Shown here one piece after another: positions 12,547 through 33,383 of a stretch of DNA of 64,000 nucleotides; position 1 is the stretch's first letter, and each line of letters starts with the position of its first letter. The position numbers were made by a program, and so were the translations under genes. Source of the stretch: Desulfoscipio sp. XC116 (GTDB lineage: Bacteria; Bacillota; Desulfotomaculia; Desulfotomaculales; Desulfallaceae); assembly GCF_039851975.1 (NCBI RefSeq), contig NZ_CP156660.1, positions 3,849,035 to 3,913,034 on the forward strand. The letters run 5' to 3'. The notes beneath the pieces were generated by a model. It searched no databases. It worked only from the letters and a program-made list of their open reading frames with translations, and was not told the DNA's origin.

Positions 12547-15500
12547 TCACTCAAAAGCAAGAACAGACGGCAATCGCCGGTCAATAAGTCTTAGCATGAC
12601 ATAGCCTATACCGGATATTCCATTGAAGAACGAAAGGTCATGTATAGTATCATCAAAACATTCCCGATACCGGGCCGCCCTTTTTAAAGCTTCGTTATAA
12701 AGCTCCGCATCGTCAAGTCTGTTTGATACGGTAAGCAGTACATCAATCAACCCGAAGTTGCCCCAACCGAGATCGTTTTTGCTCAAATCAACGGCGTTCC
12801 TGATAAGGTTAAGGACAGCTTTCAAATCACTGTTCCGCTGCCCCAATCCTATAATATCGCCGGCTTCCAGCCTGTTTAAGCAGATACCCGCGGCTCCGGT
12901 ACACCATGAAAGCTGAATTTCAGCACTTTGGCCCTCTAAACCCGGCCAGGCGTACTCTCTATCCCGAAGTATATCGTTTTCATAGCAAACGGCTTCACGG
13001 GCAGCCTGCATATATCTGGCCTCGCCTGAAACCTTATAAAGTCTGCCAAGCGCCATCGCAATACCCGAAGCCCCCCTGGAGAAAGCCGGAACAGGCCGGT
13101 TAGCAAGAGTAAACATACCCGAGGGCTTCCAGGCCTTTAAACCGTTAGCACCTTCCACCCTGCATGCCAACAAGTGATCCGCGCATTTTACGGCCCGCCG
13201 CAAAACCTCGTCGAAGGGACATGCTCCATATAGAGCTAAGAGACCGAGTATGGCGCCCGCAGAGCCGGATATCACGTCATACTCATCATCATTGGCAATC
13301 AACCGGTCGCTGATAGTCCGAGACAACTGCAATGCCTTGCGCAATAGCAATTCATCGGCGGTCAACTCCCATATCTTTACAAGTACATAAACAATTCCGC
13401 CCAGCCCTTTACCCGCTCCGATACGCCCGGTTCCCGAGACTCCTTTCTGAACCCGATCCGCAGTTTTAATCATTTCATTAACCAGTTCAGCTGGGGGAAA
13501 TTTCATATCCGCTTGATCACCCAGGATTTTTCGGCAGGCTGATAAAAACAGGCATACACCCGCTTTTCCGTTATACAGGTTGTCATTCATAATATTCAAT
13601 TCTATGTACGGATTAATCCCTTTAACAATGTTCGGCCAGGTCACGCTTGTATCAGTTATTATAGCCCGGTCACAAATATAACCGGCTATCGTCTCCGCCG
13701 CCTCCGGCAAGCGTTCCCGGTTGATCATACCAACGTGCTGCTTTCTGTTTATTATATTCCCTTCCGCAGTCCGACCCCTGCTATCTTGCACTACCGCATC
13801 CTTAACTCTGAATGACTCTCCGATCAGTGCACACTGCTTGGCCAGGTCATCTTCACTCATGCCGTAGATCCTGCATTTCGCAACCGCCATGGGTGTATCC
13901 GTGAAAAAGTTTTCTATAACCCGGCCATTTTCATTCTCCAGCCGGCGGTTGCAGGTGTTAATATAAAATATGGGGATATCACCCCGATCGAAAGCTTCGT
14001 GTTCCAGCCTGACAATGTCCCAATGCGCGGGTTTTTTACTGTCGGCCAGCAGCGTCCGGCTGATTTTGTCCAGCCTGATGCTGCGCAATATACCATTTTC
14101 CAAATACTGTGGCCGCATTGAATTGTAAAGAATAGTAAAATACAGGTTTGTTCTCCTGAATACATACCGGACCCTTTTATCTTCAAACATACTTAACGAA
14201 CCGGCTGCGGAAAGAAGCCTGTCTCTGTGACGCAGTATCGCATTGTAGGCTTTTTTAAAGCCCGCCTCAATGTCTTTCAAATACTCCCCGGGTTCTACCC
14301 GCTTACCGTCAAGATATACGCAGCTCTTGCTTTCAGCCGCACCCCGAGCAGCAACGGCCTGTTCATCATTATGCCCGCCCCCAAGACCGGCAAGAGAAAA
14401 GCAACCGTTACGGTCCCTAAAAAACTGGACAGGTAAAAGTGACGTTTCCAACACAGTGTGCTCGCCCGGCTTTGATTTTTCATGTTCGGGCGAAGGCTGC
14501 AGTATCACTTCCAGATCGACAGCTACCGGGTATTCCCCTTGAGCGATTATATTTTCGTGATGCAAGTCGCCGCCGGCAAGAAGATACATTATACAAAGCA
14601 GCATACCGCCGCGCCTGTAATAACCGACTACCTCCCGTTCATTCCGGCACGGAAGGTGCTCGCAGTATTCAACCCAGCCATGACTTCCCCGGTTCAGGAT
14701 TTTCAATACCCTGAACATGTCCTCATTCTCCAAGGCATTTATTTGCGCGACAAGATGAAAGAAGCTTTCCTCTATCCCCAGGTCGCGCGGTTTGAATATA
14801 AGCTTAAGCTTGCTCTCAAATGCCAGTTTTATTACACTTCGTCCTCCGCTATGCGGGTCAGAGAGACCGCATTCAATCCGGTTGACCCTGCCCGGATGCC
14901 ACTGTTCCCCGAAAACCCCGCCGATGAGATCCATATCGTCGGCAAGCGCGTTCAGGAGCTGAGCCGAAGCATCAACCCAGAATAATGTAAATTGAGACAT
15001 CAACCTGGCCATGACCGGATATTTCCCGAATACTTTGAGTATCTCTCCTTTAAGCAGGGCATCAATAAAGACAGGGTATCTGCTGTTCCCAAGCTCCATT
15101 TCCGCATGTAAAACATCAACCGAAACAAAGCTAAGCCGCAAAAGCAGGAAACGTACCAGGCCGGTAAATGCCTGCAGGGTAAACAAATCGTTTATTTTTC
15201 CGCTCCGCTCGTAAAGCCGCTTAATACCTGTATTGGCAAAGAGCATCTGAATTTCTTCAAACGGGTGTTTTTCATCCTTGAAGGCATGAGGGCTTTTGCA
15301 AAGCTCACTGGCAGTGGTACGGCCGGCCAGCTCCAGCACCTCCCCCAGCAGCACCGCCCACGGGGAGTCCTGCTCTCCTTGCCCCGTTACGGCATCCGCC
15401 ATCAGCCCCAGCGCCGTTTGATTATCAATACCGTCCCAGGTTAACCTTTTTTTAAAAACCAGGTTATCATTGGCGGCCGCATACTCTTTCCACTGCTTTA

Positions 15501-15624
15501 ACCTTCGCTCCGCATTTTCCGTATCCAGCGCATGTATAGTTTTGCCTGAAACAACGTCCAGTCTTTCATATAATGTTTGCGCATGCCAAGCCATGTCTTG
15601 CACATACTTGCCGACAGTTCCCAT
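12547..15624 (-). CDS. lanM: LanM-type lanthipeptide synthetase, dehydratase intact, cyclase zinc site lost
   Basis: 1025 residues from ATG 15624, 1 bp after the radical SAM stop (TGATATG) with RBS AAGGAT; the longer frame would overlap the rSAM gene by 80 bp. LanM dehydrates Ser/Thr in the core by phosphorylation and elimination. All dehydratase motifs are visible: SDPHSGGR (D256, H258), IFKPR (K278), GDLHHEN (D353, H355, N358), VDLE (D370), RRTN (T492). In the LanC-like half (~650-1025) only WCTG (C908) remains. The catalytic His motif (HG) is SRG (Arg850), and the usual CHG is GWG (Gly953-Trp954). Ring formation by zinc-activated Cys should therefore fail. Last gene of the RiPP biosynthetic run. 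Confidence 0.88.
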   Translation of the reverse strand: MGTVGKYVQDMAWHAQTLYERLDVVSGKTIHALDTENAERRLKQWKEYAAANDNLVFKKRLTWDGIDNQTALGLMADAVTGQGEQDSPWAVLLGEVLELAGRTTASELCKSPHAFKDEKHPFEEIQMLFANTGIKRLYERSGKINDLFTLQAFTGLVRFLLLRLSFVSVDVLHAEMELGNSRYPVFIDALLKGEILKVFGKYPVMARLMSQFTLFWVDASAQLLNALADDMDLIGGVFGEQWHPGRVNRIECGLSDPHSGGRSVIKLAFESKLKLIFKPRDLGIEESFFHLVAQINALENEDMFRVLKILNRGSHGWVEYCEHLPCRNEREVVGYYRRGGMLLCIMYLLAGGDLHHENIIAQGEYPVAVDLEVILQPSPEHEKSKPGEHTVLETSLLPVQFFRDRNGCFSLAGLGGGHNDEQAVAARGAAESKSCVYLDGKRVEPGEYLKDIEAGFKKAYNAILRHRDRLLSAAGSLSMFEDKRVRYVFRRTNLYFTILYNSMRPQYLENGILRSIRLDKISRTLLADSKKPAHWDIVRLEHEAFDRGDIPIFYINTCNRRLENENGRVIENFFTDTPMAVAKCRIYGMSEDDLAKQCALIGESFRVKDAVVQDSRGRTAEGNIINRKQHVGMINRERLPEAAETIAGYICDRAIITDTSVTWPNIVKGINPYIELNIMNDNLYNGKAGVCLFLSACRKILGDQADMKFPPAELVNEMIKTADRVQKGVSGTGRIGAGKGLGGIVYVLVKIWELTADELLLRKALQLSRTISDRLIANDDEYDVISGSAGAILGLLALYGACPFDEVLRRAVKCADHLLACRVEGANGLKAWKPSGMFTLANRPVPAFSRGASGIAMALGRLYKVSGEARYMQAAREAVCYENDILRDREYAWPGLEGQSAEIQLSWCTGAAGICLNRLEAGDIIGLGQRNSDLKAVLNLIRNAVDLSKNDLGWGNFGLIDVLLTVSNRLDDAELYNEALKRAARYRECFDDTIHDLSFFNGISGIGYVMLRLIDRRLPSVLAFE

Positions 15625-15625
15625 A

Positions 15626-17620
15626 TCAAATATCCTTAAGCCATGTAAATGATGGTATGGGCTTACCAGCCCTTTTTTTATTGTAAACGGTTTCGCGAGT
15701 TGCAAGGCTCAAAACCCGTCCGCCCAAATTCAATACCAATTTCCATTCCTTAAGCCTGCCGATAACATCATTCAATTCCAGTCGTCTTATGTTCAGCCCG
15801 TAATGCCGGTTGAAGTTTTCCAACAACTGAACAGCCGGCCTAGGCCGCCTGCAAAATTGATGCACTTTATGTTCAAGCCCTTCCAGGTAGTATTCATGTT
15901 GGCAGGCACAATCCCTGGTGTCTGTTATAATAGTCATATCCTCCAGTTCACACATGATAAGCTGCGGCTTGCCATCTTTCTTGCAGGCGATTGGCAGGCC
16001 ACCACTTAAGTCCGAGCTCCAGCCTGAATAAAAGGCCCTGTTCCACTCGTCAAAACATGCCTTAATCCGCTGCGCGCCCGAGCCCGCACCTCTTCCCTCC
16101 CGCGTATAATCTTCAAAAAAACAGGCCATATTTTCAATTTCACAGCTATCAAGCGGATATATATAGGCATATGTTTTATACGGCGACAAATTAAGCCCAT
16201 ACTTGTCTTGCCGGTTGTAATAAGAGCTGAAACGGTCAAATCTTATTTTGCTGATACTGTCCGGCGGTTCAAGATGGTAAATCAAAGGAAGCCACTGCGA
16301 TGTTTCATCATTCCAGGCATCATCTTCTCCCGGTATACCAATAAGGTAATTCCACGACACCTTGATGCCGTTTTCCATAGCATATTTAAGCAAAGCTATA
16401 TTCCAAGCCGCAAAATTCCCCTTGTTCATTAGCTTCAGCGAGTTGTCGTTAAGACTTTCAATGCCCGGCTGAATCCAGGTGATGCCGGCTCGTTTCAACG
16501 CCACAACCTGTTGTTCATTTAAATTGGCTTTGGTCTCGAAAAAAAATGTATTCAACGGCCTGCTTGCCGATATACGGGGCAGAAGCTCCTTGAAATGGTT
16601 CATGTCCATAATGTTGTCCGAAGCAAAAAACCTGTGCAGCGAATACTTTTGCGACAGCGCGGCAATCTCATCAATTACCCTGTCTGCCGACTTCCTTCTG
16701 AACTTCACATTTTTTCCGTTGAGCCCGCAAAAATTGCACTTATGTTTTTGCCCCCACCAGCAGCCCCTTGATGTTTCGATCATTAAAACAGGGGTTATGC
16801 CTTCCCTTGCCGATAATCTTCCCAGTTCCGCAAAGTAATCCGCATAATCAGGTACGGGAACACTATCCAAATCATCTATCATCGCCACGGGTGAAGTTAA
16901 GTCGTTATCCCTCACCGCACGCACATATTCCCGGGAAATCACGCCATAAGGCAAAACCTCCTGCTTTACAGCAGTCCCGTCAGCCAGTATCTTTTCGCAA
17001 AAATCAGGAAAATTTAAGTCCGCTTCCCCCGACATGACAAAATCCAGCCACGGAAAACACCTTAATGTTGTCTGCCCCATGACCCCTTCGCAATTCGCCC
17101 CACCCATAATCGTAATCACTTCGGGATTCAGTTCCTTCAGTTTTCTGAGCAGGGCCAGTGAGGAACAGTGCTGCTGGAACATTGAACTGCAGCCGGCAAT
17201 ACGGGGGTTCATTGCCAGTATCCTTTCGGCCGCCTCATTGATAAAAACACCGGCTTTTTCCCTCATTTCCAGCAGGAATTCAACGATATTTTTATGTTCA
17301 CTGAATTTATTAAGGATAATGTCTATAAAACCCTCTTCATGATATGATGCCGCCAGGGCCAGATACTCGTCATCACCGGCGTGAAAACCCGGAAAAGCGG
17401 CCCTTGAAAACGTCCATTCAGCCAAAAGACTTGCCGGATTTAACAAACGACAGATTAGATTATAATTTTTAATGCCGATTTTCTCTGCAAACCAAAACTT
17501 CGCATAAACCGCCCCGGCATCTATCCCTTTTCCTTTTGCTGCCGCAACCAACTGTCCGATACCAATGGAAGGCATGTGCAATAAATCGTACGGCATTGAA
17601 ATAATACATACATCCGGCAT
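15626..17620 (-). CDS. Cobalamin-binding radical SAM RiPP maturase (C-methyltransferase type)
   Basis: 664 residues. N-terminal B12-binding-like domain (MPDVCIISMPYDLLHMPSIG; GGANCEG near 173), then a radical SAM core with the unusual C-x7-C-x2-C cluster motif RGCWWGQKHKCNFCGLNG (C287, C295, C298). That motif and the overall plan are those of the RiPP maturation radical SAM protein 1 family, associated with C-methylation of Nif11/NHLP-type peptides. RBS GGATAGGGG, 37 bp after the YcaO gene. Here the likely substrates are Thr/Val/Ala carbons of the core at 22402-22713. Confidence 0.88.
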   Translation of the reverse strand: MPDVCIISMPYDLLHMPSIGIGQLVAAAKGKGIDAGAVYAKFWFAEKIGIKNYNLICRLLNPASLLAEWTFSRAAFPGFHAGDDEYLALAASYHEEGFIDIILNKFSEHKNIVEFLLEMREKAGVFINEAAERILAMNPRIAGCSSMFQQHCSSLALLRKLKELNPEVITIMGGANCEGVMGQTTLRCFPWLDFVMSGEADLNFPDFCEKILADGTAVKQEVLPYGVISREYVRAVRDNDLTSPVAMIDDLDSVPVPDYADYFAELGRLSAREGITPVLMIETSRGCWWGQKHKCNFCGLNGKNVKFRRKSADRVIDEIAALSQKYSLHRFFASDNIMDMNHFKELLPRISASRPLNTFFFETKANLNEQQVVALKRAGITWIQPGIESLNDNSLKLMNKGNFAAWNIALLKYAMENGIKVSWNYLIGIPGEDDAWNDETSQWLPLIYHLEPPDSISKIRFDRFSSYYNRQDKYGLNLSPYKTYAYIYPLDSCEIENMACFFEDYTREGRGAGSGAQRIKACFDEWNRAFYSGWSSDLSGGLPIACKKDGKPQLIMCELEDMTIITDTRDCACQHEYYLEGLEHKVHQFCRRPRPAVQLLENFNRHYGLNIRRLELNDVIGRLKEWKLVLNLGGRVLSLATRETVYNKKRAGKPIPSFTWLKDI

Positions 17621-17657
17621 TTTAATCCCCCTATCCTTTTCCGTCGTCGTCAGCCGT

Positions 17658-19541
17658 TTAAATATGGACTTGCTTTCGTTGATCTATCCGGTTTTCAAGC
17701 TGTTTTTCCTTCAACCTCATCCGCATCTTCCTTATTGCATCATACGAACAGCGGCTTGAGGCATGACATGCTTGACAATTAAAGCAATTAAGAGATGTGT
17801 AAAGCCGTTTCAGAATCTCACGAGGCTCCCCGGCATGCCGCATAACCTGATCCCAAATATCACAGGTATAAAACTTATTCAAGAATCCAATGGCTTTCTC
17901 ATCCCCGATACCTCTCGTTAACGCACCGGCATAATCCCTCAGGCAGGCATAATAAGCCGCGTTAGCGTCATTACGGCTCTTCATGCGCGCGGCGACATAT
18001 CCGAATCCCCTGTACGCTTCATTATATTTGCCCAACCTGTAATAACAGGCGGCCAGCAGAAAATCCCAAGCCGATTGTCCGCCGGGAAAATCAGGCTTTA
18101 ACGGCAATCCGGCGCTAAACTCCAGACTGTTCTCAAGAGCCCAGTTCCTTTTATATGACATATATCTGACTAATTTTTGCACATCTTCTTCAGAGGCCTC
18201 AGGCAGCTTTCTGATGATATTTTTAACAACATCCAGAGTGCTTTTTTCTCTTAGCCTTTGGGTACCGAAATTAAAAATCTCACTGTAACCGGGCACAACT
18301 ATTTGAAAGCTGTGAAATCCCAGATATGAAACATCGCGAATCATTATTTCATGACCTTGACCTGCCAATTGGCTGATTGCATACTCTAAAAGCTCACCGT
18401 TGGTTTCCCCGCCATGGTCATTAAACGGAGTGAACTCATAACTGTACTTTTCGGAAAAGAACTGTTCCGGATACTGCCCTGACGCCACCTTTAAAATATT
18501 GTGCAGATTGTCCGGTCCGCCGACCTGCTCAAATCCGTTGGCAATACGGCAAACTTGGGCCGCGGTTGAGATATCCCGCCCCTGGAACATCTCGGTAAGC
18601 GTCCTTTCCAAGGCTATTTCGAACACCGGGTGAGCTCCGAACTTGACGACATAAGCCCGGGCATCCAGATTAATCAGGACAGAAGCGATAACCGGGAATC
18701 CGCTGTCCAAAGAGCAGTCTTTAATGATCAACTTGTAATTTCCCTTGCTTTCTATCTGCCTGATAATACCGTAAAGACGTTCATATCGGCGCAAATACCA
18801 TTCAGGGATGGTGGGAGGGGTTAATCTTTCAGTAATGATTCGCACATTGGCATGGCGTTCGAACAGCTCCGACAATCCCTGTAACAGCGCTTCCTCACGG
18901 GTATTCCCGGCGCATGTCCCGTTGCTGCCGTATATGGCTCTGAGAATGGATACCGGCATATAGTACAAGTCACCGGTCCGCAAGCTGCAAAATGGGATGG
19001 CCACAAAATCATGGCCGCAGCCCCGGGGTACGGCAAAACTCCACCGTTTAAGCAATGCATACCTCTCACCGATTGCTCCGTCAGGATCGAGAAGCCTTGC
19101 CGCAAGTGAACCGAGCATACCGCTTCCGGGCTTGATTTGCTCATCTTTATGCCTGATTATATCAAGCAACTTATCCACCCACGGGTTATCTTCCCGGGCC
19201 AGTTCCTTGATACCCATCAGTCTCTCGTCCGGTGCATAATAAAAGCCGCAGTGCTTCCACACCTCTTCATCATAATCGCCGGAATAAAGCAAGTCGTTCT
19301 GGATTCGCTCCATTAACTCCGCATAGGCACTGGCCAGAGCAAATTCAGACGTTGCCCCCTTGCCGTTCTGCCCCATACCTGTTCCCGCAATTTCCACCCT
19401 CAACGAGTAACACCCGTCGACCTTGGAGTCCGTCCATTTATCAATAGTGGATATCCCTAATCCATGCAAGATGTTTCTTATCTCATATACCGTGTCCAAC
19501 GGAGGAGTTTCTTTGAACTTGTTTCGCAGCAAAAAGCTCAT
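17658..19541 (-). CDS. YcaO protein 1 (E. coli YcaO subtype, C-terminal 4-Cys motif)
   Basis: 627 residues. The YcaO ATP-binding glutamates are in SAYAELMER (S71-R79) and GLSELFERH (~225). Stretches GSNGTCAGNTREEALLQGL and FGAHPVFEIALERTLTE follow the E. coli YcaO protein (RimO accessory, TPR-like tail), not azoline cyclodehydratases. The C-terminal region is TPR-like (LLAACYYRLGKYNEAY) and ends with C586-x2-C589-x2-C592-x5-C598, which E. coli YcaO lacks. YcaO enzymes phosphorylate backbone amides (azoline, thioamide, amidine chemistry); which applies here is unknown. ATG overlaps the previous stop by 4 bp. No E1-like partner, TfuA or flavin dehydrogenase in the cluster. Confidence 0.85.
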   Translation of the reverse strand: MSFLLRNKFKETPPLDTVYEIRNILHGLGISTIDKWTDSKVDGCYSLRVEIAGTGMGQNGKGATSEFALASAYAELMERIQNDLLYSGDYDEEVWKHCGFYYAPDERLMGIKELAREDNPWVDKLLDIIRHKDEQIKPGSGMLGSLAARLLDPDGAIGERYALLKRWSFAVPRGCGHDFVAIPFCSLRTGDLYYMPVSILRAIYGSNGTCAGNTREEALLQGLSELFERHANVRIITERLTPPTIPEWYLRRYERLYGIIRQIESKGNYKLIIKDCSLDSGFPVIASVLINLDARAYVVKFGAHPVFEIALERTLTEMFQGRDISTAAQVCRIANGFEQVGGPDNLHNILKVASGQYPEQFFSEKYSYEFTPFNDHGGETNGELLEYAISQLAGQGHEIMIRDVSYLGFHSFQIVVPGYSEIFNFGTQRLREKSTLDVVKNIIRKLPEASEEDVQKLVRYMSYKRNWALENSLEFSAGLPLKPDFPGGQSAWDFLLAACYYRLGKYNEAYRGFGYVAARMKSRNDANAAYYACLRDYAGALTRGIGDEKAIGFLNKFYTCDIWDQVMRHAGEPREILKRLYTSLNCFNCQACHASSRCSYDAIRKMRMRLKEKQLENRIDQRKQVHI

Positions 19542-21388
19542 AAAACACCCCCGGTATTAAAGATTTCAGCCAGTCTTTCCTGATTGATCGGATTGGCGGC
19601 ATACCTCTCCTTCAACACCTTAAGCACCTTCTCGGTCCCTTTGTAGCAGCAGTATTCTCCGGCCTGACAACTTTCGCAATCCCAACAGGTGAATTTAGGA
19701 TAAATGCGCTCAAAAACCTGCTCCGGCTCATGCAATTGGCGAATAACCTTTTGGGCAATTTCCAGCGGGTATATTTGCCGCAAAATAGCTTGAATTTCTT
19801 CTTGGGCCAAGCCGGCAGACCTTGCTTCGGCATAATCCGCCAGGCATTTGTAATAGCAATATTGCTCATCTTCACCGCCGTCATGAACAGCGGCCACATT
19901 TCTCAATACCCGGCAGGCTTCGTCCAATCTGCCAAGCTTGTACAGGCATACAGCCATAAGCAAGTCCACATCGGCTAAGCCGCCGGGCAGCGCTTTAACA
20001 AGCGGTCGCCCGATGATCAGGTGCATCCGGTTTTCCAGCAGTGAATACCTCTTAAATCGGATATATCTAACAACTCTTTCCAGTTCTTCATCGGAAGCCC
20101 GGCCAAGATTACCGATGGTTTTTGACATAGCCGTGTACGTCTTTAGTTCCTTGACCCTCATTAAGTCTGCAGGATACATTTCACTAAAACCCGGAACAAT
20201 GATTTGGTAACTGGGAAAACCAAGAAATGAAACATCCCTCACCAGCAGGTCATAACCTTGATCAACCAGAAGCTTAACCATGTGCTGAAGCATTATTTTA
20301 TTTAAACGCACATGACGGTCATCCATAAATGGCTTGAATTCATAGCTGAATTTATCTGCAAGCAATTCCGCGGGATATTGACCCGCACCGACTTTAGCGA
20401 TATTAACAGCGTTATCTCTGTGATAAAGGAATTCGTCCTTAAATCCTATTCTGCAGCTTTGGGTAAAGCTTTCAATATTTTGCCCCTGGAAGGCTTCGGT
20501 AATCGTCCTTTCCAGAGCAATCCGGAATGATGGGTGAACGCCCAGCTTCATACCAAAGGTACCCTTGCGGGTATCTATGATCATAGTTCCTACCACAGGG
20601 TATTTTTCCCCCAGGGAGCAGTCTTTTACCACTACCCGGTAGCGTCCGCTTTGCCGGATGGCCCGGATGATCCTGTACAAGCCGGGATAGTTCATCAGGT
20701 AACTGTCCGGTATGGTTGGGGGAGTTATCCGATCGGTAATCAGTTTTTTATTAACATAACGTTCGAATATTTCCGATAACCCCTGCACCAGAGCTTCCTC
20801 CGGGGTATTCCCCGCGCACATCCCATTGCTTCCATATATAGAGCAGTACATGTCATGCAACAAATATTGAATATCATTTCTTTTAATACTGTAAAACGGG
20901 ATAGTAATCGCGCCGGAGGGATAACCGGGGGGATTGAATACCGTCCAGTTTTTTATGCACTCCAGCCTGTCGTTACTTTTAATTTCAGGCATATGTCCCA
21001 TGGTCTCAGAAAGGACATAATTCAACATGTCATTATCCATTTCGGCTATTTCATTATAAGAGCAATATTTCTCATCAGGAGCAGCCACAAACCCGGCATG
21101 GGTTGCGGCCTCATCGGTTAAGCCGCCAAGATACAGTATCTTATTCTGCATACGCTCCATAAGCTCCGCGTAGGCACTGGCCAGCGCGTAAACCGGGTCG
21201 GTTCCCTTACCATTCGAGCCCATGCCCGTACCGGCAATAGAAACCCTCAGGGCATGGCATCCTTCAATTCCGGAATCTATCCAATCATCAATGGTCGGGA
21301 TACCCAAACCGTAGAGAATATTTCTTATTTTATGTACCGTATCCGCCGGTAAGGCATCTTTAAACCTGTTATAACTTAAATTATCCAT
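19538..21388 (-). CDS. YcaO protein 2 (paralogue of YcaO 1)
   Basis: 616 residues from ATG 21388, chosen because MDNLSYNRFKDALPADTVHK aligns with the start of YcaO 1 and because it overlaps the methyltransferase stop by 8 bp (ATGGATAA). ATP-site motifs SAYAELMER and GLSEIFERYV are present; FGMKLGVHPSFRIALERTIT matches the paralogue. It ends with the same spacing C568-x2-C571-x2-C574-x5-C580. The two paralogues are clearly diverged, so they may form a heterodimer or act in sequence. The four-Cys tail could hold zinc or an Fe-S cluster. Confidence 0.85.
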   Translation of the reverse strand: MDNLSYNRFKDALPADTVHKIRNILYGLGIPTIDDWIDSGIEGCHALRVSIAGTGMGSNGKGTDPVYALASAYAELMERMQNKILYLGGLTDEAATHAGFVAAPDEKYCSYNEIAEMDNDMLNYVLSETMGHMPEIKSNDRLECIKNWTVFNPPGYPSGAITIPFYSIKRNDIQYLLHDMYCSIYGSNGMCAGNTPEEALVQGLSEIFERYVNKKLITDRITPPTIPDSYLMNYPGLYRIIRAIRQSGRYRVVVKDCSLGEKYPVVGTMIIDTRKGTFGMKLGVHPSFRIALERTITEAFQGQNIESFTQSCRIGFKDEFLYHRDNAVNIAKVGAGQYPAELLADKFSYEFKPFMDDRHVRLNKIMLQHMVKLLVDQGYDLLVRDVSFLGFPSYQIIVPGFSEMYPADLMRVKELKTYTAMSKTIGNLGRASDEELERVVRYIRFKRYSLLENRMHLIIGRPLVKALPGGLADVDLLMAVCLYKLGRLDEACRVLRNVAAVHDGGEDEQYCYYKCLADYAEARSAGLAQEEIQAILRQIYPLEIAQKVIRQLHEPEQVFERIYPKFTCWDCESCQAGEYCCYKGTEKVLKVLKERYAANPINQERLAEIFNTGGVL

Positions 21389-22301
21389 TTCGGTCACTCT
21401 TTTCCCCGACAACCAGCGCATTAGCGCCCCCATGCCATTCCCAGATGAGGTTTTCTCCAATATTCCGGAGCAGATAATCCCGCCTGGCAAGCAGGAGCCT
21501 CAGATAGCGGTCACACTCGTCCCGGCTGAAATATTTTCCTGTCTCCCCCAGCTCCATATAGTTCAGCAGCTTTTGTCTTTCGGCTTCATACATGCCCATG
21601 ATATATTCCTGCTTCTCACCGGCAGGCACAGCCGCATTACTGAGAGAGAAAGCCTTGCCTATCGGATAAAGACAAACGTTGTTCAAACCGGCCTCGGCAA
21701 AGAAATGGGGTATTTCGGATGTAGGGAGCCCCCCGGTGTAATTTGACAGAGGATTAATTGATTGGTACATGTTCCATACTTTCGCTTCCAACTCAAGCAA
21801 TTCTTTATGCCAGGCGCACTCAACCGGGTAGTAGCCCTTATGCCAGGTCTGATTGACAAAAGACATGGCGGTGATGGATGCAATCATACCTCCGGGTCTG
21901 GTTACCCGCATCATCTCGGATAACGCTTTTTTCGGATCTTCCACACTGGTAAAAAAAGTATGGCTCACCACAATATCAAAACTGTTTTCGGTAAAGGGCA
22001 ACTTACAGGCATCCCCGACAATAAATTCAAAACTGCCCTTCACACCTTTATCTTGAACCGCCCTCCCGGCTTGCTGTATAAATACGGCATCGGTATCAAT
22101 GCCTGTAATTTTCAAGTTTTCCGCCCCATCAGCAAGATAACGGGCAAAGCAGCCTGTCCCGCAGCCTACGTCCAGCAGTTCCATTCCCTGTGTAATACAG
22201 CAGTATTTCATAATTAAAGGCCTTAAATCATCGCTCAATAATGCTTTTCTTGTCATTTCCATATAGGTGGGATTCTGAAAATATTTAGACCATCTCATCA
22301 T
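21381..22301 (-). CDS. Class I SAM-dependent methyltransferase
   Basis: 306 residues. Rossmann SAM-binding motifs LDVGCGTGCFARYLA (motif I, ~43-57), TGIDTD (II), VGDACKLPFTENSFDIVVSH (III/IV) and RVTRPGGMI. Soluble. 100 bp downstream of the precursor gene and overlapping YcaO 2. Likely an N-, O- or S-methyltransferase that tailors the peptide; the target cannot be read from sequence. Confidence 0.85.
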   Translation of the reverse strand: MMRWSKYFQNPTYMEMTRKALLSDDLRPLIMKYCCITQGMELLDVGCGTGCFARYLADGAENLKITGIDTDAVFIQQAGRAVQDKGVKGSFEFIVGDACKLPFTENSFDIVVSHTFFTSVEDPKKALSEMMRVTRPGGMIASITAMSFVNQTWHKGYYPVECAWHKELLELEAKVWNMYQSINPLSNYTGGLPTSEIPHFFAEAGLNNVCLYPIGKAFSLSNAAVPAGEKQEYIMGMYEAERQKLLNYMELGETGKYFSRDECDRYLRLLLARRDYLLRNIGENLIWEWHGGANALVVGEKSDRNG

Positions 22302-22401
22302 TCAAGCCCGCCTTCTGATGTAAAAACTGGTAATTAACCGCGACGGGCAGAGCGATTGCACTGCCCTGCCCGTTATCACGTTTAAATCCGGCCGCTCAAA
22401 C

Positions 22402-22713
22402 TTATATGGCAGCTGCGGCCGCAGGTCCTGCCGCACCAATGGTAGCGGTAACAACAGTAACTGTATTATCATCGCTCCAGCCGCCCGCCACTTGCTCCAG
22501 ATCGTCATCCGAAAGCTCGCCTTTGTTTTTCGTGATCGACTCGTTCAGCTTCTTCATGGTGGAAGTAAACTCATCAAAACTTAATCCGTCAACCGCACCC
22601 TTGGCAACCTCAAAAGCTTCCTCCGGGCTCTTGCATGCTTTCAGCTTATTCTGCAAAGCCTCATCCTTGCCCAGCTTTTCGATAAAACTCTTCATTGCCT
22701 CTGTCATGTCCAT
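22402..22713 (-). CDS. RiPP precursor, Nif11-type leader with Cys-free core
   Basis: 103 residues, RBS GGGAGGT, ATG. Leader residues 1-78 have the Nif11-like pattern (FIEKLGKDEALQNKLKAC, SPEEAFEVAKGAVDGLSFDE) and end ELSDDDLEQVAGG, a double-Gly site for C39 peptidases. The 25-residue core is WSDDNTVTVVTATIGAAGPA followed by AAAAI. It has one Ser and four Thr for dehydration, no Cys at all, and a poly-Ala tail. It lies directly upstream of methyltransferase, YcaO, radical SAM and LanM genes on the same strand. The only clear precursor in the cluster. Confidence 0.9.
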   Translation of the reverse strand: MDMTEAMKSFIEKLGKDEALQNKLKACKSPEEAFEVAKGAVDGLSFDEFTSTMKKLNESITKNKGELSDDDLEQVAGGWSDDNTVTVVTATIGAAGPAAAAAI

Positions 22714-25002: not shown

Positions 25003-25299
25003 CTATATACCGTCCTTTTTATCTAATATATCGTTCAAATTAACCCCACCGGCAACCATATCCAATTCATCATCCTCTATTTCACCGTTTTCCGGAATAG
25101 CCGACAGCATCTTTTTTATTCGGTTTATCCGCTCCCGGTTTTCCGGGGTATAATCCGCTTTCGCCAGCATCTGAGCAAGGAATAATAATTCTTTGTATTC
25201 TTCATCACAGCCCTCGTACTCAGATGAGCTGCCTGACTCCCCGGATACGATCTTGTCTATATCTGCAATGAATGACTCCAAGGAATGTTTATCGCACAT
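25003..25299 (-). CDS. Small protein ending in a GG leader-like motif
   Basis: 98 residues. The middle (EYKELLFLAQMLAKADYTPE, then NRERINRIKKML) resembles the helical body of small anti-sigma-like proteins. The end, EIEDDELDMVAGG followed by 13 residues VNLNDILDKKDGI, looks like a double-Gly leader junction (compare ELSDDDLEQVAGG in the precursor). The 13-residue tail has no Ser, Thr or Cys, so LanM cannot modify it. The start follows the sigma factor stop by 29 bp. It could be an anti-sigma factor, a signal peptide precursor, or both. Confidence 0.6.
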   Translation of the reverse strand: MCDKHSLESFIADIDKIVSGESGSSSEYEGCDEEYKELLFLAQMLAKADYTPENRERINRIKKMLSAIPENGEIEDDELDMVAGGVNLNDILDKKDGI

Positions 25300-25328
25300 T
25301 TGCTTTACACCTCAAATCACAATTTGGC

Positions 25329-25862
25329 TTAATATACAACTCCCTGCTCCTTTAAAATGTCCTTTAACTTTTTTAAGGACCTGTAGAGAATTGTTCCGAC
25401 ATTACTTTCCGTTATGTTCACCATCCGGGCGATTTGGCGGTTGGTTAGGCAAGCTCCGAATTTCAGCGCAATTACATTTCTTTGCCTGTCGTCCAGGCCC
25501 ATAATTGCCTTAAGAAGAAGTTCTTTTAATTCCCGGTCGATAATCAAATCCTCCAGCCGGTATTTTGATTCCACTTTCTCCAAGTCGATAGGCTCCGTAT
25601 GCCGGTTATTCTTCTTGAAGTAATTGATTATAGTATTGTTGGCTATAGTAAACAGCCACGTGCTGAACTTGCCTTTACCCGGGTTGTATGTATTAAACTT
25701 TACCAGCACTTTTTCAAACACTTCACTGACCAGGTCTTCCGCCGTACTAATGTCGCCTACTCTGTAAAGAATGTATTTGTAAACTTTGGGAAAGTATTCA
25801 TTATATACTTCGGAATATAAATCCGAATGTATTGTTTGTACGGGAATACCGTTAAAGTTCAA
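25329..25862 (-). CDS. ECF-type sigma factor
   Basis: 177 residues: region 2 (YFPKVYKYILYRVGDISTAE, DLVSEVFEKV, FSTWLFTIANNTIINYFKK) and region 4 (LDDRQRNVIALKFGACLTNR then QIARMVNITESNVGTILYRS). Lacks regions 1 and 3, so it is an extracytoplasmic-function type. Starts 2 bp after the preceding gene and is followed by the small GG protein, a position typical of an anti-sigma factor. Likely controls the RiPP cluster. Confidence 0.88.
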   Translation of the reverse strand: MNFNGIPVQTIHSDLYSEVYNEYFPKVYKYILYRVGDISTAEDLVSEVFEKVLVKFNTYNPGKGKFSTWLFTIANNTIINYFKKNNRHTEPIDLEKVESKYRLEDLIIDRELKELLLKAIMGLDDRQRNVIALKFGACLTNRQIARMVNITESNVGTILYRSLKKLKDILKEQGVVY

Positions 25863-25864
25863 TT

Positions 25865-26980
25865 TCAGCGCACCTCTTCCCCTAAAAAGGCTTCCAAACC
25901 GTTTTCCAGCAACTTTTTCTCCATATTTTCCGACGCCAGCTCAACTAAATTCATCTTGGACATGGCTAACAGCATTTGATATTTTCCCTCACCCTGATAA
26001 AAACACGGAGCATACTTGTCACTGAATATTTCCAGATTACAAGCCGCGTTATAAATATAAAACTTTAATTTTTCAAAGGCCCGACCCGATAATTCCTTGT
26101 CTTTTAAGTAGTTGGCCAGCCTGCCTCCGGTGCGATAAACGGGGTAATCCTCCAGGCCCATAAAACAAAGAAACCAGTGCGCCCTGTAGCTGCCTGTGGC
26201 AGCTGCCAAGCCCATGTAATCGGCAATCAGTTCATCCAATAAATGATTGCGGGCCGAATTCCAAAAACGCAGCGTGCAATAATGCGTAGCCTCATGTTCC
26301 CGGCGAATATCCAGGGATAAACGCCTCCACCGCTCACCGGATATACCCAGCATCTCAGCGGGAACATTGCTATATTCCTTGTCACTGAGTATTAAAAATG
26401 TATCCCTGTAAAACTCCGTTTGGGACTTCATCTTTTCAAATTCCAGTTGCCATAATAAGTCCGGGTTTTCTTTATGACCGTTGGCACTGTGCCATTTTTC
26501 TTTGTACTTTTTTACCCGGTCCCAATTGTTATAACCCTTAATCATACAGGCGCCCATAGAAGGTGGTATCAATACCGGCTCGTTTCTGTGGGCAAATACG
26601 CGCACTAAAGTTTCAAAATCACTCCTGTTCCCAATCTGCATTACCGGTATTCCGCCGGCAAGCGTTTGATAAAGATATACTTCAATATTACCGGGCTCTT
26701 CCAGTCTAACCCCCGTTGCTTCAGGCATTGCAGAAGTCTCGGCCCCTTTCCGGGCAGCCGAACGGTAATTGGAATTTTGGCTCATTCCTTCTCTAACCGG
26801 AAAATTAAGCTGTATCAACCTTTGTTGCAGGGAAGCGAGAAAGCCATGTTGAGGAATATCCTTTATATATTCCTCCCAATCCCGGACAAAGAGTTCATCC
26901 GGCAGGGGTATTCCCTGCCGGGGTTTAAAATGGGTATGATCGAAATAATTTTCCAGCAGAAATGACAATTGTTCCTGCAT
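25865..26980 (-). CDS. Unknown protein with HExxH motif
   Basis: 371 residues, soluble, no signal peptide. Contains RREHEATHYCTLRFW (H229-E230-x-x-H233) and 17 residues later DELIADYMG (E250), the arrangement of a zinc metallopeptidase active site (HExxH...E). I do not recognise the family with certainty; proteins of this kind occur beside NHLM export genes. It may be a peptidase acting on the leader, on the anti-sigma-like neighbour, or in immunity. Placed between the exporter and the sigma factor with short gaps (2 and 23 bp). Confidence 0.55.
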   Translation of the reverse strand: MQEQLSFLLENYFDHTHFKPRQGIPLPDELFVRDWEEYIKDIPQHGFLASLQQRLIQLNFPVREGMSQNSNYRSAARKGAETSAMPEATGVRLEEPGNIEVYLYQTLAGGIPVMQIGNRSDFETLVRVFAHRNEPVLIPPSMGACMIKGYNNWDRVKKYKEKWHSANGHKENPDLLWQLEFEKMKSQTEFYRDTFLILSDKEYSNVPAEMLGISGERWRRLSLDIRREHEATHYCTLRFWNSARNHLLDELIADYMGLAAATGSYRAHWFLCFMGLEDYPVYRTGGRLANYLKDKELSGRAFEKLKFYIYNAACNLEIFSDKYAPCFYQGEGKYQMLLAMSKMNLVELASENMEKKLLENGLEAFLGEEVR

Positions 26981-27003: not shown

Positions 27004-29691
27004 CTAAGCAAGTTGTCTTTTAGCTAACTGGGTGAACACGCCATTTTGTTCAAACAATTCATCATAGGTGCCGCATTCGATTACCCGGCCCCGATCCAAA
27101 ACAATTATCTTGTTGCAATCGGCAATTGTGCTTAACCGGTGAGCTATGACTACTCGCGTTGCATTTAATCCGGATAAGCTTTTGCCCACGATTCTTTGGG
27201 TTTTATTATCCAAAGCACTGGTAGCTTCATCAAAATAAACGATCTTGGGTCCGGAGATAATCGCCCGGGCAATTAAAAGCCGCTGTTTTTGTCCCCCGGA
27301 AAGTGTGCCGCCACTCTCACTGACCATGGTGTGCATGCCCATGGGCATACTTTTAATATCCTCTTCCATACCCGCCATGCGGGCCGCTTCCCAAGCGTCG
27401 TCAATGGTTAAGCCCGGGTTCGCCCCGATAATGTTATCAAATATACTCCCGGACATTAATTGTCCGCCCTGAAGCACCACACCCAGTTGACGGCGAACGG
27501 CACGTATGTCGACATTTGCTAAATCCTGTTGATCGTAATAAACCTGCCCGGCTTCCGGCTTCTCAAAACCCAGTAATACCCTGAATAAGGTTGATTTTCC
27601 GCTGCCCGAAGGCCCTACTATACCCACATAGTCCCCCTGTTTGATTTCCAGCGTAACATCGTCTAAAATTAATGGACCGTCTTTTTCATAGCGGAAACTG
27701 ACATGGCTGACTTCAATATTGCCCCGGAGCTCTCCGGGATCCGCCTTTTCCTGGTCAAACTCGGGCAGAGTTACCAGAATAGGCTTGGTTCTTTCATATA
27801 ATGGCTTAATAATATTGAGCTGCAGGATCACAGTGGATATTTCAAGCATGGAGCTTAGGAATTTGGTAAACGCCGAGTTAAAAGCAATAAACTTGCCCGC
27901 AACCAGATTTACATCTTGCATTTTCAAAACCGCAAAGAAGATAATCCCCGATGCAATTACATTGACGGTGGAATTGAAAACCGCCATATAGTTACCCAAG
28001 TTTTCCTTTTTATATGTAACGTCCCTGACCTGGCTGAATTGCCGGGCCCAGTTATGGAAAGCCCGTTTTTCAGCCCCCGCGGTTTTTATTTTGCTCACAC
28101 CGCTGAGCAGGTTAAAAATCTTTCCTGAAAGCTTATTTTGCAAATCCACCAATTGGCGCTCATAGCGGATTTGTAAATACCCGCATGAAAGAGATATGGC
28201 CATAACAAATATAACAATAGCCAAGCAAATAAGGGCCAGTTTCCAGCTATAATAAAACAACAGGAAAAAATAAAATATCGAGAAGATACCGGAAATGACC
28301 GTGTTGGAAACAGCACCCGATAAAATAGCCCTGATCTGGCTCACGCCCATGGCCCGTTCGGCCAGCTCACCGGCAGTGTAATCCTTAAAAAAGGGTACGG
28401 GCAGACTCAATAACCGGTCCCAGATAGCCGCCTGCAAATCAGACTCCGTTCTTCCTTCTATCCGGTGCATAGCAAAAGCTCGGGTCAGGTTAAAAGCAAA
28501 AGTAGCTGTCGCAATTGCTATGAGTAAGAAACCAATCTGTGTGAGCAGCACTCTTTCACCGTCGGGAATGACGCTGTCAAAGATTATCCCCGTCACCACG
28601 GGAGTCAGCATGCCTAATAATCCACCCAGAATGCCCATAAGTAAAACGGTGGTAAGGTCCCTCTTCCGTATCCCACCGGCTAAAAAACCAAGTAATTCTT
28701 TATAACCGATCACCTTTGGGGGAAGAGGACGATAAAAAGTAAAAGCGTACGGTTTCAGAAGATCCGCTGCCTTACTGTCTACAACAGCCATGGTCTCGTC
28801 TGAAGGGTCATATAACTCGTACTTGGTTGGCGACAGCGGCAATAATGCCAGCGGCCGCCCGTCTTCTTCCCTGTAAACCAGCAGGGCGCCGTTGTCTTCT
28901 TTCCACCATTGATCTTTTAAGATAATTTGTCTCATTCTAATTTGTGACGCCCTGGCGATATCACCCAGCAAGTCCTTGGATGCCGCGTTTCCTTTACTAA
29001 GCTCGTTAGAAGGGACAATTTTAATATTCTTGGCCTTGCCCACCGCTGCGCAGGCCTTAAACAGCAAATTATCCACCAATGATTCTTGCACACCATCATC
29101 AGGCTTTTGTTTTAAGTTCATAGAGTTGACAAGACTGTGCAATCCGCTGCTCATTGAATAGTTGTCTGTCTCTTCTCTTGCTTGACATCTTAATACCTCT
29201 TCTTTTTTTTCGGCCAGAAGCAGCTCGACAACCCGGTTAAAAGCAGTTTTATTAAAGCCGGCCAGGTTATCTAATATGGCGCTGAGTTCAATATCCCGGC
29301 CAAAGTGCCGTTCTTCTTTAATCCCGGTACCGGTCCAATTTTTAGTCCATTTTTCCAGTAAGCCGGACAGCTTTTTCATATCTTCTCCGTCAGTCCCTTT
29401 CAATAACTGCCGGATTTCAGCCGCCAGTAATCTGGTTCCCGTGCACCCCACTGCCAGTAACCCGTACTGCGTCTCTCCCCTGACAACGGGCTCGGCCCCT
29501 AATAAGAGGTCCCCTTTTCCCGCGGTAAATAAATATTTTCTGCGGCCGGCCGCTTCACCGGCTGAGATTTTGGCGGCAAACAGATCAACCTGTCCCTCTT
29601 TAACTACCCATACTTTACCTGCGCCCAGAATTACAGGGTTGTTCCCCTCAGCTTTTATTTCTTTATGCTCCAAGCCTCTTAAAAAGTTCAC
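27004..29691 (-). CDS. NHLM-type ABC transporter, permease/ATPase without peptidase
   Basis: 895 residues. A long N-terminal cytoplasmic region (~1-330) precedes a type-I exporter membrane domain (DLTTVLLMGILGGLLGMLTP onward) and an ABC ATPase with Walker A GPSGSGKST, signature LSGGQKQR and Walker B IVYFDEATSALD. The long N-domain with no C39 Cys/His is the mark of the second ABC protein of NHLM peptide export systems. Works with the C39-ABC protein and HlyD partner just upstream. Confidence 0.88.
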   Translation of the reverse strand: MNFLRGLEHKEIKAEGNNPVILGAGKVWVVKEGQVDLFAAKISAGEAAGRRKYLFTAGKGDLLLGAEPVVRGETQYGLLAVGCTGTRLLAAEIRQLLKGTDGEDMKKLSGLLEKWTKNWTGTGIKEERHFGRDIELSAILDNLAGFNKTAFNRVVELLLAEKKEEVLRCQAREETDNYSMSSGLHSLVNSMNLKQKPDDGVQESLVDNLLFKACAAVGKAKNIKIVPSNELSKGNAASKDLLGDIARASQIRMRQIILKDQWWKEDNGALLVYREEDGRPLALLPLSPTKYELYDPSDETMAVVDSKAADLLKPYAFTFYRPLPPKVIGYKELLGFLAGGIRKRDLTTVLLMGILGGLLGMLTPVVTGIIFDSVIPDGERVLLTQIGFLLIAIATATFAFNLTRAFAMHRIEGRTESDLQAAIWDRLLSLPVPFFKDYTAGELAERAMGVSQIRAILSGAVSNTVISGIFSIFYFFLLFYYSWKLALICLAIVIFVMAISLSCGYLQIRYERQLVDLQNKLSGKIFNLLSGVSKIKTAGAEKRAFHNWARQFSQVRDVTYKKENLGNYMAVFNSTVNVIASGIIFFAVLKMQDVNLVAGKFIAFNSAFTKFLSSMLEISTVILQLNIIKPLYERTKPILVTLPEFDQEKADPGELRGNIEVSHVSFRYEKDGPLILDDVTLEIKQGDYVGIVGPSGSGKSTLFRVLLGFEKPEAGQVYYDQQDLANVDIRAVRRQLGVVLQGGQLMSGSIFDNIIGANPGLTIDDAWEAARMAGMEEDIKSMPMGMHTMVSESGGTLSGGQKQRLLIARAIISGPKIVYFDEATSALDNKTQRIVGKSLSGLNATRVVIAHRLSTIADCNKIIVLDRGRVIECGTYDELFEQNGVFTQLAKRQLA

Positions 29692-31938: not shown

Positions 31939-31967
31939 GGCAATCACCCCAATATTCAAGCACTGAA

Positions 31968-33353
31968 TTATTCAAACAAAATCTTTTTAATAAAGGGAAT
32001 AACCATATTGATTGGTCGCTGTTCACTTACTTTTGCTTCCCCGATGCATAAAGTTCCGCTATCTATGATCATTTTCGGCCCATCGGGCGTGGACCATTTA
32101 TACCCGCTAACCGTACCGCTATTCCTGATTAGTTCCACCCTGACCTCCACGGGCGAACTTTGACCCAACAACTTGTTGACCAATTCCGCATTGCCCAGGG
32201 TAAGCATCATACCCTGGGAACTGACGGGATATTCGGAAACTGATTTAACGTTTCCCAGCATATACCCGTCCTCTTCTTTTTTAACAGTGGTGGGAGAAAT
32301 GTTAACCTCCATGCCCGGGTGTACCTTTTTCCCTTGCTCCACCGGTATAAATACCACCGCCTCCAACGATTCGGCTTCATTTTCTTCTTTGGCAATACTG
32401 CAAACACTGCTGCCTGCCTGTACCAGGTCGCCTTTTTTAACCTGCAGCTCCAATACACGCCCCGCAACATCCGATGTAATATCGCTGTTAATAACAAGCT
32501 GCTCCTGCAGCCTGGCAATTTCGGTTTCCAGTTCCTTTTCTTTTGAAAACTTGATTTTATTTAATGTCTGTATCAAAACTTCTAAATTTTCCTCGGCCTG
32601 TTGCACTTGGGACCGGGTATATTCATTACCTTCCAATTGCAGATTCCGCAGCTGCTCTTTCTTGTTTTGCAGATTTGATTCGCTCAATATAAAATTACGC
32701 TCAGCTTCTTTAAAATCTTGTTCGGATACAGCGCCATTATCAAACAAGTACTTTAAGTTTTCATAGTTTTCCTTTGTTTTTTCCAGCTGCAGCGTCGCCT
32801 GGTTCAGTTCCGATTTAGCCTGCTCCAGCTCTATAGCCCGGGTTTTTTCGGCAGAGCTTAGATTAGCTCTCTGGACATCAAGGCTTGTCCTGGCATATCC
32901 TATATCCCGAAAAAATTCAGCTATTTGCCCGTAAGTATTTAGATCCAGCTTATCATCTTCCTGCAGGGGGTTATTCGGGTCCAATTCCTTTATAACTTTC
33001 AGATCCACTTTAAGTTTATTGATCTCTTCGATAATATCCGTTTGTTCCGCCCTGGCGATTACATCACCTTTTTCCACGTAATCGCCCTCCCGGACACTAA
33101 CATCGGTTATCTGGCCGCTGACGCGGGGAATTACGCCGGAGACACCACCGCTGGATATAATAATCCCCTGGCCCACGGCCTTGTCGGGTATTTTCCCGAA
33201 AATTCCCCAAATAATGCCCGTTACAACCAGCATAATAACAGCCAGGCAGGCCAACCAGCCTGTTGGCGATGTAACTGTTAACCGCTGATCCAATTCTTCC
33301 GGTGAAGACAAACGATCCAGGGATACTTTTCGGAAAACCTTATTTTCAGCCAT
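31968..33353 (-). CDS. NHLM-type HlyD-family adaptor
   Basis: 461 residues from ATG 33353 behind GGAGGGAGGT; the TTG 21 bp upstream overlaps that RBS. One N-terminal membrane segment (WLACLAVIMLVVTGIIWGIF), a biotinyl-lipoyl-like half motif (GVIPRVSGQITDVSVREGDY), a long coiled coil (~130-290) and the second lipoyl half (SDVAGRVLELQVKKGDLVQA). Links the ABC exporters across the wall. Ends 29 bp before the C39-ABC start. Confidence 0.88.
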   Translation of the reverse strand: MAENKVFRKVSLDRLSSPEELDQRLTVTSPTGWLACLAVIMLVVTGIIWGIFGKIPDKAVGQGIIISSGGVSGVIPRVSGQITDVSVREGDYVEKGDVIARAEQTDIIEEINKLKVDLKVIKELDPNNPLQEDDKLDLNTYGQIAEFFRDIGYARTSLDVQRANLSSAEKTRAIELEQAKSELNQATLQLEKTKENYENLKYLFDNGAVSEQDFKEAERNFILSESNLQNKKEQLRNLQLEGNEYTRSQVQQAEENLEVLIQTLNKIKFSKEKELETEIARLQEQLVINSDITSDVAGRVLELQVKKGDLVQAGSSVCSIAKEENEAESLEAVVFIPVEQGKKVHPGMEVNISPTTVKKEEDGYMLGNVKSVSEYPVSSQGMMLTLGNAELVNKLLGQSSPVEVRVELIRNSGTVSGYKWSTPDGPKMIIDSGTLCIGEAKVSEQRPINMVIPFIKKILFE

Positions 33354-33383
33354 AATGCCGTTACCTCCCTCCAAGGGTTCTCG

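What the first reader, a model, noticed from the sequence alone, without database searches (positions are those of the whole stretch)
12547..22713. Dehydratase-only LanM paired with a Cys-free Nif11 core: a lanthionine-free dehydropeptide pathway
Seen: in LanM the three key cyclase sites are changed (catalytic His to Arg850; Cys-His zinc pair to Gly953-Trp954), while the dehydratase residues D256, H258, K278, D353, H355, N358, D370 and T492 are all present. Seen: the only clear core peptide has Ser and Thr but no Cys. Known: zinc-bound Cys/His in LanC domains activates core Cys for ring closure; in polytheonamide biosynthesis a LanM-like dehydratase lacks the cyclase domain. Inference: enzyme and substrate have co-evolved to give a linear peptide with Dha/Dhb residues.
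Basis: partly seen in the sequence, partly recalled or inferred. Interest (0 to 1): 0.93.

Follow-up and report, generated by a model that had tools for sequence, protein, structure and literature searches.

The report
Peptide-modifying enzyme with a dead ring-closer
This bacterium has a gene cluster that should turn a short cysteine-free peptide into a heavily modified linear one, using a lanthipeptide-type enzyme that keeps its dehydrating half but has lost the zinc site of its ring-forming half; comparison shows the cluster is a variant of the known but little-understood 'lah' type, in which such losses happened more than once.

Summary
The LanM (ATG 15624 to 12547, -) keeps every dehydratase residue named. 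Its cyclase half has catalytic His->Arg850 and the last two zinc positions Gly953-Trp954; the first zinc Cys (908) remains. The genome's only Nif11 precursor over cut-off has a Cys-free core, WSDDNTVTVVTATIGAAGPAAAAAI. A same-genus orthologue shares these features (72% identity), and its 'dead' cyclase half is the best conserved part (78%), so it is not decaying.

LanM is the last gene of an operon with a LahSB-like C-terminal methyltransferase, two YcaO proteins and a B12 radical-SAM methylase: a variant of the published lah type (Lachnospiraceae C6A11), whose LanMs also lack zinc ligands and whose cores are mostly Cys-free. The window LanM is of another lineage, among zinc-bearing LanMs; a single clade of zinc-less LanMs is rejected (AU p = 4e-5), so the loss was independent.

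LanM is an accessory: two relatives have the methyltransferase-YcaO-YcaO module without a neighbouring LanM, one with a core lacking Ser, Thr and Cys, where YcaO cannot be making azolines. Most likely product: a linear peptide with Dhb/Dha, C-methyl groups, a YcaO backbone change and a C-terminal methyl ester. No chemistry was tested.

The parts
22402..22713 (-). Nif11-leader precursor peptide, 103 aa; GG cleavage site after residue 78
   Evidence: TIGR03798 E 1e-11, above cut-off; 85% identical in L007
22405..22479 (-). Core WSDDNTVTVVTATIGAAGPAAAAAI: no Cys, 1 Ser, 4 Thr, Ala-rich C-terminus ending in Ile
   Evidence: Translation; relatives' cores all end in Ile, Val or Met
21381..22301 (-). 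SAM methyltransferase, LahSB family; predicted C-terminal carboxyl methylation of the core
   Evidence: phmmer to 6UAK LahSB E 5e-82, next hit 3e-15; 45% identity
19538..21388 (-). YcaO protein 1 (YcaO domain plus C-terminal CxxCxxCx5C motif); start overlaps the end of the methyltransferase gene
   Evidence: PF02624 E 2e-45; motifs compared; closest solved structure E. coli YcaO 4Q84
17658..19541 (-). YcaO protein 2, about 44% identical to YcaO 1, same motifs
   Evidence: PF02624 E 1e-53
15626..17620 (-). B12-binding radical-SAM RiPP C-methyltransferase (rSAM_ocin_1)
   Evidence: TIGR03975 E 3e-197, 657 bits against a cut-off of 282
12547..15624 (-). LanM, 1025 aa: intact DUF4135 dehydratase half, LANC-like half without a usable zinc site
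   Evidence: TIGR03897 E 1e-196; residues; model pLDDT 79, cyclase half Z 31.9 to NisC
13075..13077 (-). Codon of Arg850, in place of the catalytic His
   Evidence: Alignment; Arg also in the orthologue L007
12901..12903 (-). Codon of Cys908, the one zinc ligand that is kept
12763..12768 (-). Codons of Gly953-Trp954, in place of the other two zinc ligands (Cys-Cys in the nearest relatives)
   Evidence: Ser-Trp in the orthologue L007
25003..25862 (-). ECF sigma factor (25329-25862) and a 98-aa protein with a leader-like end ...EIEDDELDMVAGG and a tail without Ser, Thr or Cys (25003-25299); probable regulators
   Evidence: Sigma70 r2/r4 in Pfam; no family for the small protein; same pair in L007
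27004..33374 (-). Export set: NHLM ABC transporter 2 (27004-29691), C39-peptidase ABC transporter 1 (29776-31959), HlyD-like adaptor (31968-33374)
   Evidence: TIGR03797, TIGR03796 and TIGR03794, all above cut-off; PF03412 E 2e-37

Best explanation
A lah-type RiPP cluster makes a linear, lanthionine-free peptide. Steps inferred from the families: (1) the Nif11 leader is recognised; (2) the YcaO pair changes backbone amides of the core, probably in the Ala-rich C-terminal part, most likely to thioamides; (3) LanM phosphorylates and eliminates Thr/Ser to Dhb/Dha with its intact N-terminal half, while its zinc-less LanC half no longer closes rings and serves as a substrate-positioning scaffold that the dehydratase still needs; (4) the B12 radical-SAM enzyme adds C-methyl groups; (5) the LahSB-like enzyme methylates the C-terminal Ile carboxylate; (6) the C39 transporter cuts after GG and exports. 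The LanM was recruited from a zinc-bearing Cys-Cys-type lineage and lost its zinc site on its own, separately from the LanMs of the lah cluster. Shown here: gene content, residue states, conservation, independent loss, and the recurrence of Cys-free cores. Inferred: every chemical step and the order of the steps.
For: Residue states. Same operon and same losses in a second genome. Identity to the orthologue by part: cyclase half 78%, dehydratase half 75%, N-terminus 69%; dN/dS 0.15-0.27 in all parts by NG86. The model keeps the LanC toroid. LahSB match; lah cluster fetched, with two YcaO, two zinc-less LanMs and Nif11 cores. Tree: window LanM with zinc-bearing LanMs (97/98), one zinc-less clade rejected, AU p 4e-5. 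Cys in 1 of 13 lah-like cores against 12 of 13 at zinc-intact loci. Module with no LanM in G471, core DAIDNLKQLAGLFAI, no LanM match and no other Nif11 precursor above cut-off in that genome. Precedent: CcaM has a zinc-less cyclase domain that makes no ring but is required for dehydration (PMC10676384).
Against: No product, mass or structure exists. No TfuA in any of six genomes tested, so thioamide formation would need a TfuA-free route. The orthologue genome has other Nif11 precursors on other contigs, one with a Cys in its core, and the window genome has a distant NHLP precursor, core FWCISFSANW, with its own DUF4135 protein; a substrate in trans is unlikely but not excluded. BICA1-7 has a Ser/Thr-rich core of this kind but no LanM beside it. 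Only two genomes carry this exact LanM.
Confidence: 0.6

Rival explanations
1. The LanC half still catalyses a zinc-independent addition, as class III LanKC cyclases do, but to a nucleophile other than a core Cys: a Cys of another peptide, a small thiol, or an amine.
For: The half is the best conserved part of the protein and keeps the toroid fold; zinc-free class III cyclases exist (general knowledge; CuvL and ThurKC are among the fold matches).
Against: The catalytic His is Arg and two zinc ligands are gone; the core has no Cys; no other precursor with Cys lies in the cluster.
Confidence: 0.12
2. The YcaO pair makes azolines from Ser/Thr of the core and LanM dehydrates what is left, giving a dehydrazole-like peptide.
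For: Dehydrazole clusters pair a zinc-less LanM with a YcaO, and CcaM acts on Ser before an azole (PMC10676384). The window core has Ser and Thr.
Against: No dehydrogenase or cyclodehydratase partner among the operon genes; a module relative (G471) has a core without Ser, Thr or Cys yet keeps both YcaO genes; the YcaOs match E. coli YcaO better than azoline-forming ones.
Confidence: 0.2
3. LanM is a relic: the operon works without it and the enzyme is on the way out.
For: Two relatives lack a neighbouring LanM.
Against: Open frame in both genomes, all dehydratase residues kept, dN/dS well below 1, cyclase half 78% identical.
Confidence: 0.06

Closest known systems
lah cluster of Lachnospiraceae bacterium C6A11 (LahA, LahM1/M2, LahSB, LahT)
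   Same: Nif11 precursors with mostly Cys-free cores ending in Ile/Val/Met; LahSB methyltransferase; two YcaO proteins; LanMs without zinc ligands; C39 transporter.
   Different: The window LanM is only 20-24% identical to the lah LanMs and of another lineage; one LanM and one precursor instead of two and several; an added B12 radical-SAM methylase; YcaOs 28-34% identical.
Dehydrazoles (carnazolamide, CcaM 'LanMbC')
   Same: DUF4135 dehydratase fused to a zinc-less cyclase domain, with YcaO; no lanthionine; cyclase domain needed for dehydration (PMC10676384).
   Different: NHLP leader and Ser/Thr/Cys-rich core there, Nif11 and Cys-free here; dehydrogenase and epimerase there; here one zinc Cys is kept and the nearest relatives carry zinc ligands, so the domain looks like a class II cyclase that lost its site.
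Polytheonamide-type proteusins (PoyF)
   Same: LanM-type dehydration without lanthionine, plus B12 radical-SAM methylation (general knowledge).
   Different: PoyF has no cyclase domain at all; NHLP leader; epimerase (general knowledge).
ProcM-like class II synthetases with Cys-Cys-Gly zinc motif
   Same: Closest LanM relatives in the sample keep Cys + Cys-Cys and the His.
   Different: Zinc pair and catalytic His lost here.
Thioamitides (YcaO-TfuA)
   Same: YcaO with Ala-rich core.
   Different: No TfuA match in the genome.

Membership tests
Class II lanthipeptide synthetase (LanM) | DUF4135 dehydratase domain fused to LanC-like domain, TIGR03897 above cut-off | tested here: met
   655 bits against 304
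Class II lanthipeptide synthetase (LanM) | Dehydratase catalytic residues | tested here: met
   All present
Class II lanthipeptide synthetase (LanM) | Zinc ligands and catalytic His of the cyclase | tested here: not met
   Only Cys908 kept; Gly953-Trp954, Arg850
Class II lanthipeptide synthetase (LanM) | Precursor core with Cys for thioether rings | tested here: not met
   Core has no Cys; only Nif11 precursor of the genome above cut-off
lah-type cluster | LahSB-type C-terminal methyltransferase | tested here: met
   6UAK E 5e-82
lah-type cluster | Two YcaO proteins beside it | tested here: met
lah-type cluster | Nif11 precursors, cores ending in Ile/Val/Met | tested here: met
lah-type cluster | LanM of the LahM lineage | tested here: not met
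   One clade rejected, p 4e-5; long branches present
lah-type cluster | Product with C-terminal methyl ester | not testable with these tools
   Needs mass spectrometry
Dehydrazole (LanMbC) | YcaO plus zinc-less LanM | tested here: met
Dehydrazole (LanMbC) | NHLP leader and Ser/Thr/Cys-rich core with dehydrogenase | tested here: not met
   Nif11 leader; core without Cys; no dehydrogenase among the operon genes
Dehydrazole (LanMbC) | Cyclase domain of class III type | tested here: inconclusive
   One zinc Cys kept and nearest relatives are zinc-bearing class II, but no CcaM sequence was held to compare
Thioamitide | YcaO with TfuA partner | tested here: not met
   No TfuA match in six genomes, own genome included

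The most novel reading that the evidence does not exclude
A two-YcaO/LahSB module installs a YcaO modification on the Ala-rich C-terminus of Nif11 cores without using Ser, Thr or Cys and without TfuA. Dehydratases are added to this module repeatedly, and each recruited LanM loses its zinc site independently and turns its cyclase half into a device that reads or holds the already modified core.
Probability: 0.33. Interest if true: 0.75.

Novelty: new variant of a known kind. Interest (0 to 1): 0.52.

Why it matters
The lah pathway has an unusual enzyme set and, in the literature held here, no known end product. The window and its relatives turn that into testable comparisons: the same module with and without LanM, a core with no Ser/Thr/Cys that isolates the YcaO reaction, and a LanM whose closest relatives still have their zinc ligands. 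That lets one ask what a LanC fold does after it stops making rings, and what a YcaO pair without TfuA or cyclodehydratase partner makes.

Tried and rejected
A second precursor with Cys in the cluster: none found among ORFs of 25 aa or more with leader-like GG motifs from 8 to 42 kb; the only other hit is the sigma-linked 98-aa protein, whose tail has no Ser, Thr or Cys. TTG start at 15705: rejected, the orthologue aligns from the ATG at 15624. Sequencing error or pseudogene: rejected by the orthologue. Shared ancestry with zinc-less LahM: rejected, with the caution that some branches are long. Decay of the cyclase half: rejected by conservation. TfuA partner: none. Other YcaO hits of the C6A11 order (L096-L101) have no LahSB, Nif11 or LanM beside them and were left out. 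A plasmid search with YcaO 1 gave only distant YcaO proteins, under 29% identity in the rows shown. The main lah paper (PMC6980331) is not held; its content is taken from PMC10373908, PMC11285071, PMC6363468 and from reading the lah locus itself. Zinc geometry could not be measured because model coordinates are not given.

Full report
What was checked. The LanM reads from an ATG at 15624 to 12547 on the minus strand (1025 aa). In the cyclase half Arg850 replaces the catalytic His, and Gly953-Trp954 replace the last two zinc ligands, while the first, Cys908, is kept. The precursor at 22402-22713 is a Nif11-leader peptide whose core, WSDDNTVTVVTATIGAAGPAAAAAI, has no Cys. It is the only Nif11 precursor over cut-off in the whole genome. 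A second RiPP locus 2.9 Mb away has an NHLP precursor (core FWCISFSANW) and its own DUF4135 protein without any cyclase domain.

The operon. In order: precursor, methyltransferase, YcaO 1, YcaO 2, B12 radical SAM, LanM. The methyltransferase matches LahSB (6UAK) at E 5e-82, the next structure at 3e-15. LahSB methylates the C-terminal carboxyl of LahA peptides ending in Met, Ile or Val, without needing the leader (PMC11285071); the window core ends in Ile. The radical-SAM protein is a RiPP C-methyltransferase by TIGR03975. Both YcaOs keep the conserved Glu/Arg motifs (AYAELMER, QGLSEhhER) of the other YcaOs compared and carry a C-terminal CxxCxxCx5C motif; the closest solved structure is E. coli YcaO. 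Upstream lie an ECF sigma factor with a small GG-tailed protein and a full NHLM export set with a C39 peptidase.

Relatives. Peptococcaceae BICA1-7 has methyltransferase-YcaO-YcaO-radical SAM-precursor with core LSKEEEIAYSTSTTTAAVPAAAAAI and no LanM beside it. Its only DUF4135 protein is on another contig, has all zinc ligands and sits beside precursors whose cores nearly all carry a Cys. G471 has methyltransferase, two YcaOs and a Nif11 precursor with core DAIDNLKQLAGLFAI: no Ser, Thr or Cys, no LanM match in the genome, no other Nif11 precursor above cut-off. The lah cluster itself (L031/L102) has two zinc-less LanMs and cores that are Cys-free in four of five cases within the operon; a rumen relative (L030) has a zinc-less LanM and three Cys-free cores, a second (L029) a Cys-free core on a contig too short to show the LanM, and a third (L032) a zinc-less LanM without a visible precursor. 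All these cores end in Ile, Val or Met.

How the LanM came about. In a maximum-likelihood tree the window LanM and its orthologue join the zinc-bearing BICA1-7 LanM (97/98), inside a larger set with zinc-bearing members; the lah LanMs lie elsewhere. Holding all lah-like zinc-less LanMs together is rejected (AU p 4e-5). Some branches are long, so this is good but not final evidence. The cyclase half is the most conserved part between the orthologues (78% against 75% for the dehydratase domain), with dN/dS about 0.2. The predicted model keeps the LanC toroid (Z 31.9 to NisC over the cyclase half, 36.1 to LicM2 over the whole protein). So the half has a use that is probably not ring closure. The published precedent is CcaM, whose zinc-less cyclase domain makes no ring but is required for dehydration (PMC10676384).

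Does a Cys-free core go with zinc loss? Across the loci fetched, 1 of 13 cores in lah-like modules has a Cys against 12 of 13 at zinc-intact LanM loci (Fisher p 3e-5; by locus 0.015). The counts are not independent, and Cys-free cores occur in the module even without LanM (BICA1-7, G471). The simplest reading is therefore that the module comes with Cys-free cores, and that a LanM recruited to it is then freed from keeping a zinc site. It is an inference from few loci.

What the YcaO pair does. G471 shows that the pair is kept where nothing in the core could become an azoline. Backbone thioamidation in the Ala-rich end is the best guess, by analogy with thioamitides, but no TfuA is present, so another YcaO chemistry is possible. 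This is inference.

Verdict. New here, as far as the held literature shows: the independent zinc loss, the conservation of the non-cyclising half, and the LanM-free and Ser/Thr/Cys-free relatives that separate the module from the dehydratase.

Noticed in passing
window 25003-25862; L007 1186-2063; L009 11253-12120; L113 1898-2764; compare L021 8244-8576 and L030 516-1357: ECF sigma factor paired with a small protein whose end mimics a RiPP leader (EIEDDELDMVAGG plus a short hydrophilic tail). The pair recurs at RiPP loci; the small protein could be a leader-mimic anti-sigma that senses the protease/exporter.
   Followed up: partly
own genome, L009 6740-12120: Second RiPP locus: NHLP precursor with core FWCISFSANW, a DUF4135 protein without a cyclase domain and with changed dehydratase residues (H to T, T to V), and two radical-SAM proteins.
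   Followed up: partly
L086 7720-13114: Minimal module: LahSB-like methyltransferase, two YcaOs and a Nif11 precursor whose core has no Ser, Thr or Cys.
   Followed up: yes
L023 9944-13276: Another LanM without any zinc ligand, beside a 62-aa precursor-like peptide with one Cys in its C-terminal part.
   Followed up: no
L097 9199-11396: YcaO beside a small Ala-rich, Cys-free peptide (PVAAAAAGPEGAALAAGAPESFAIPGGQALL), in a YcaO subtype without the C-terminal Cys motif.
   Followed up: no
window 25865-26980: DUF7005 protein of unknown function between sigma factor and transporter, 76% identical in the orthologous cluster (L007 68-1156).
   Followed up: no
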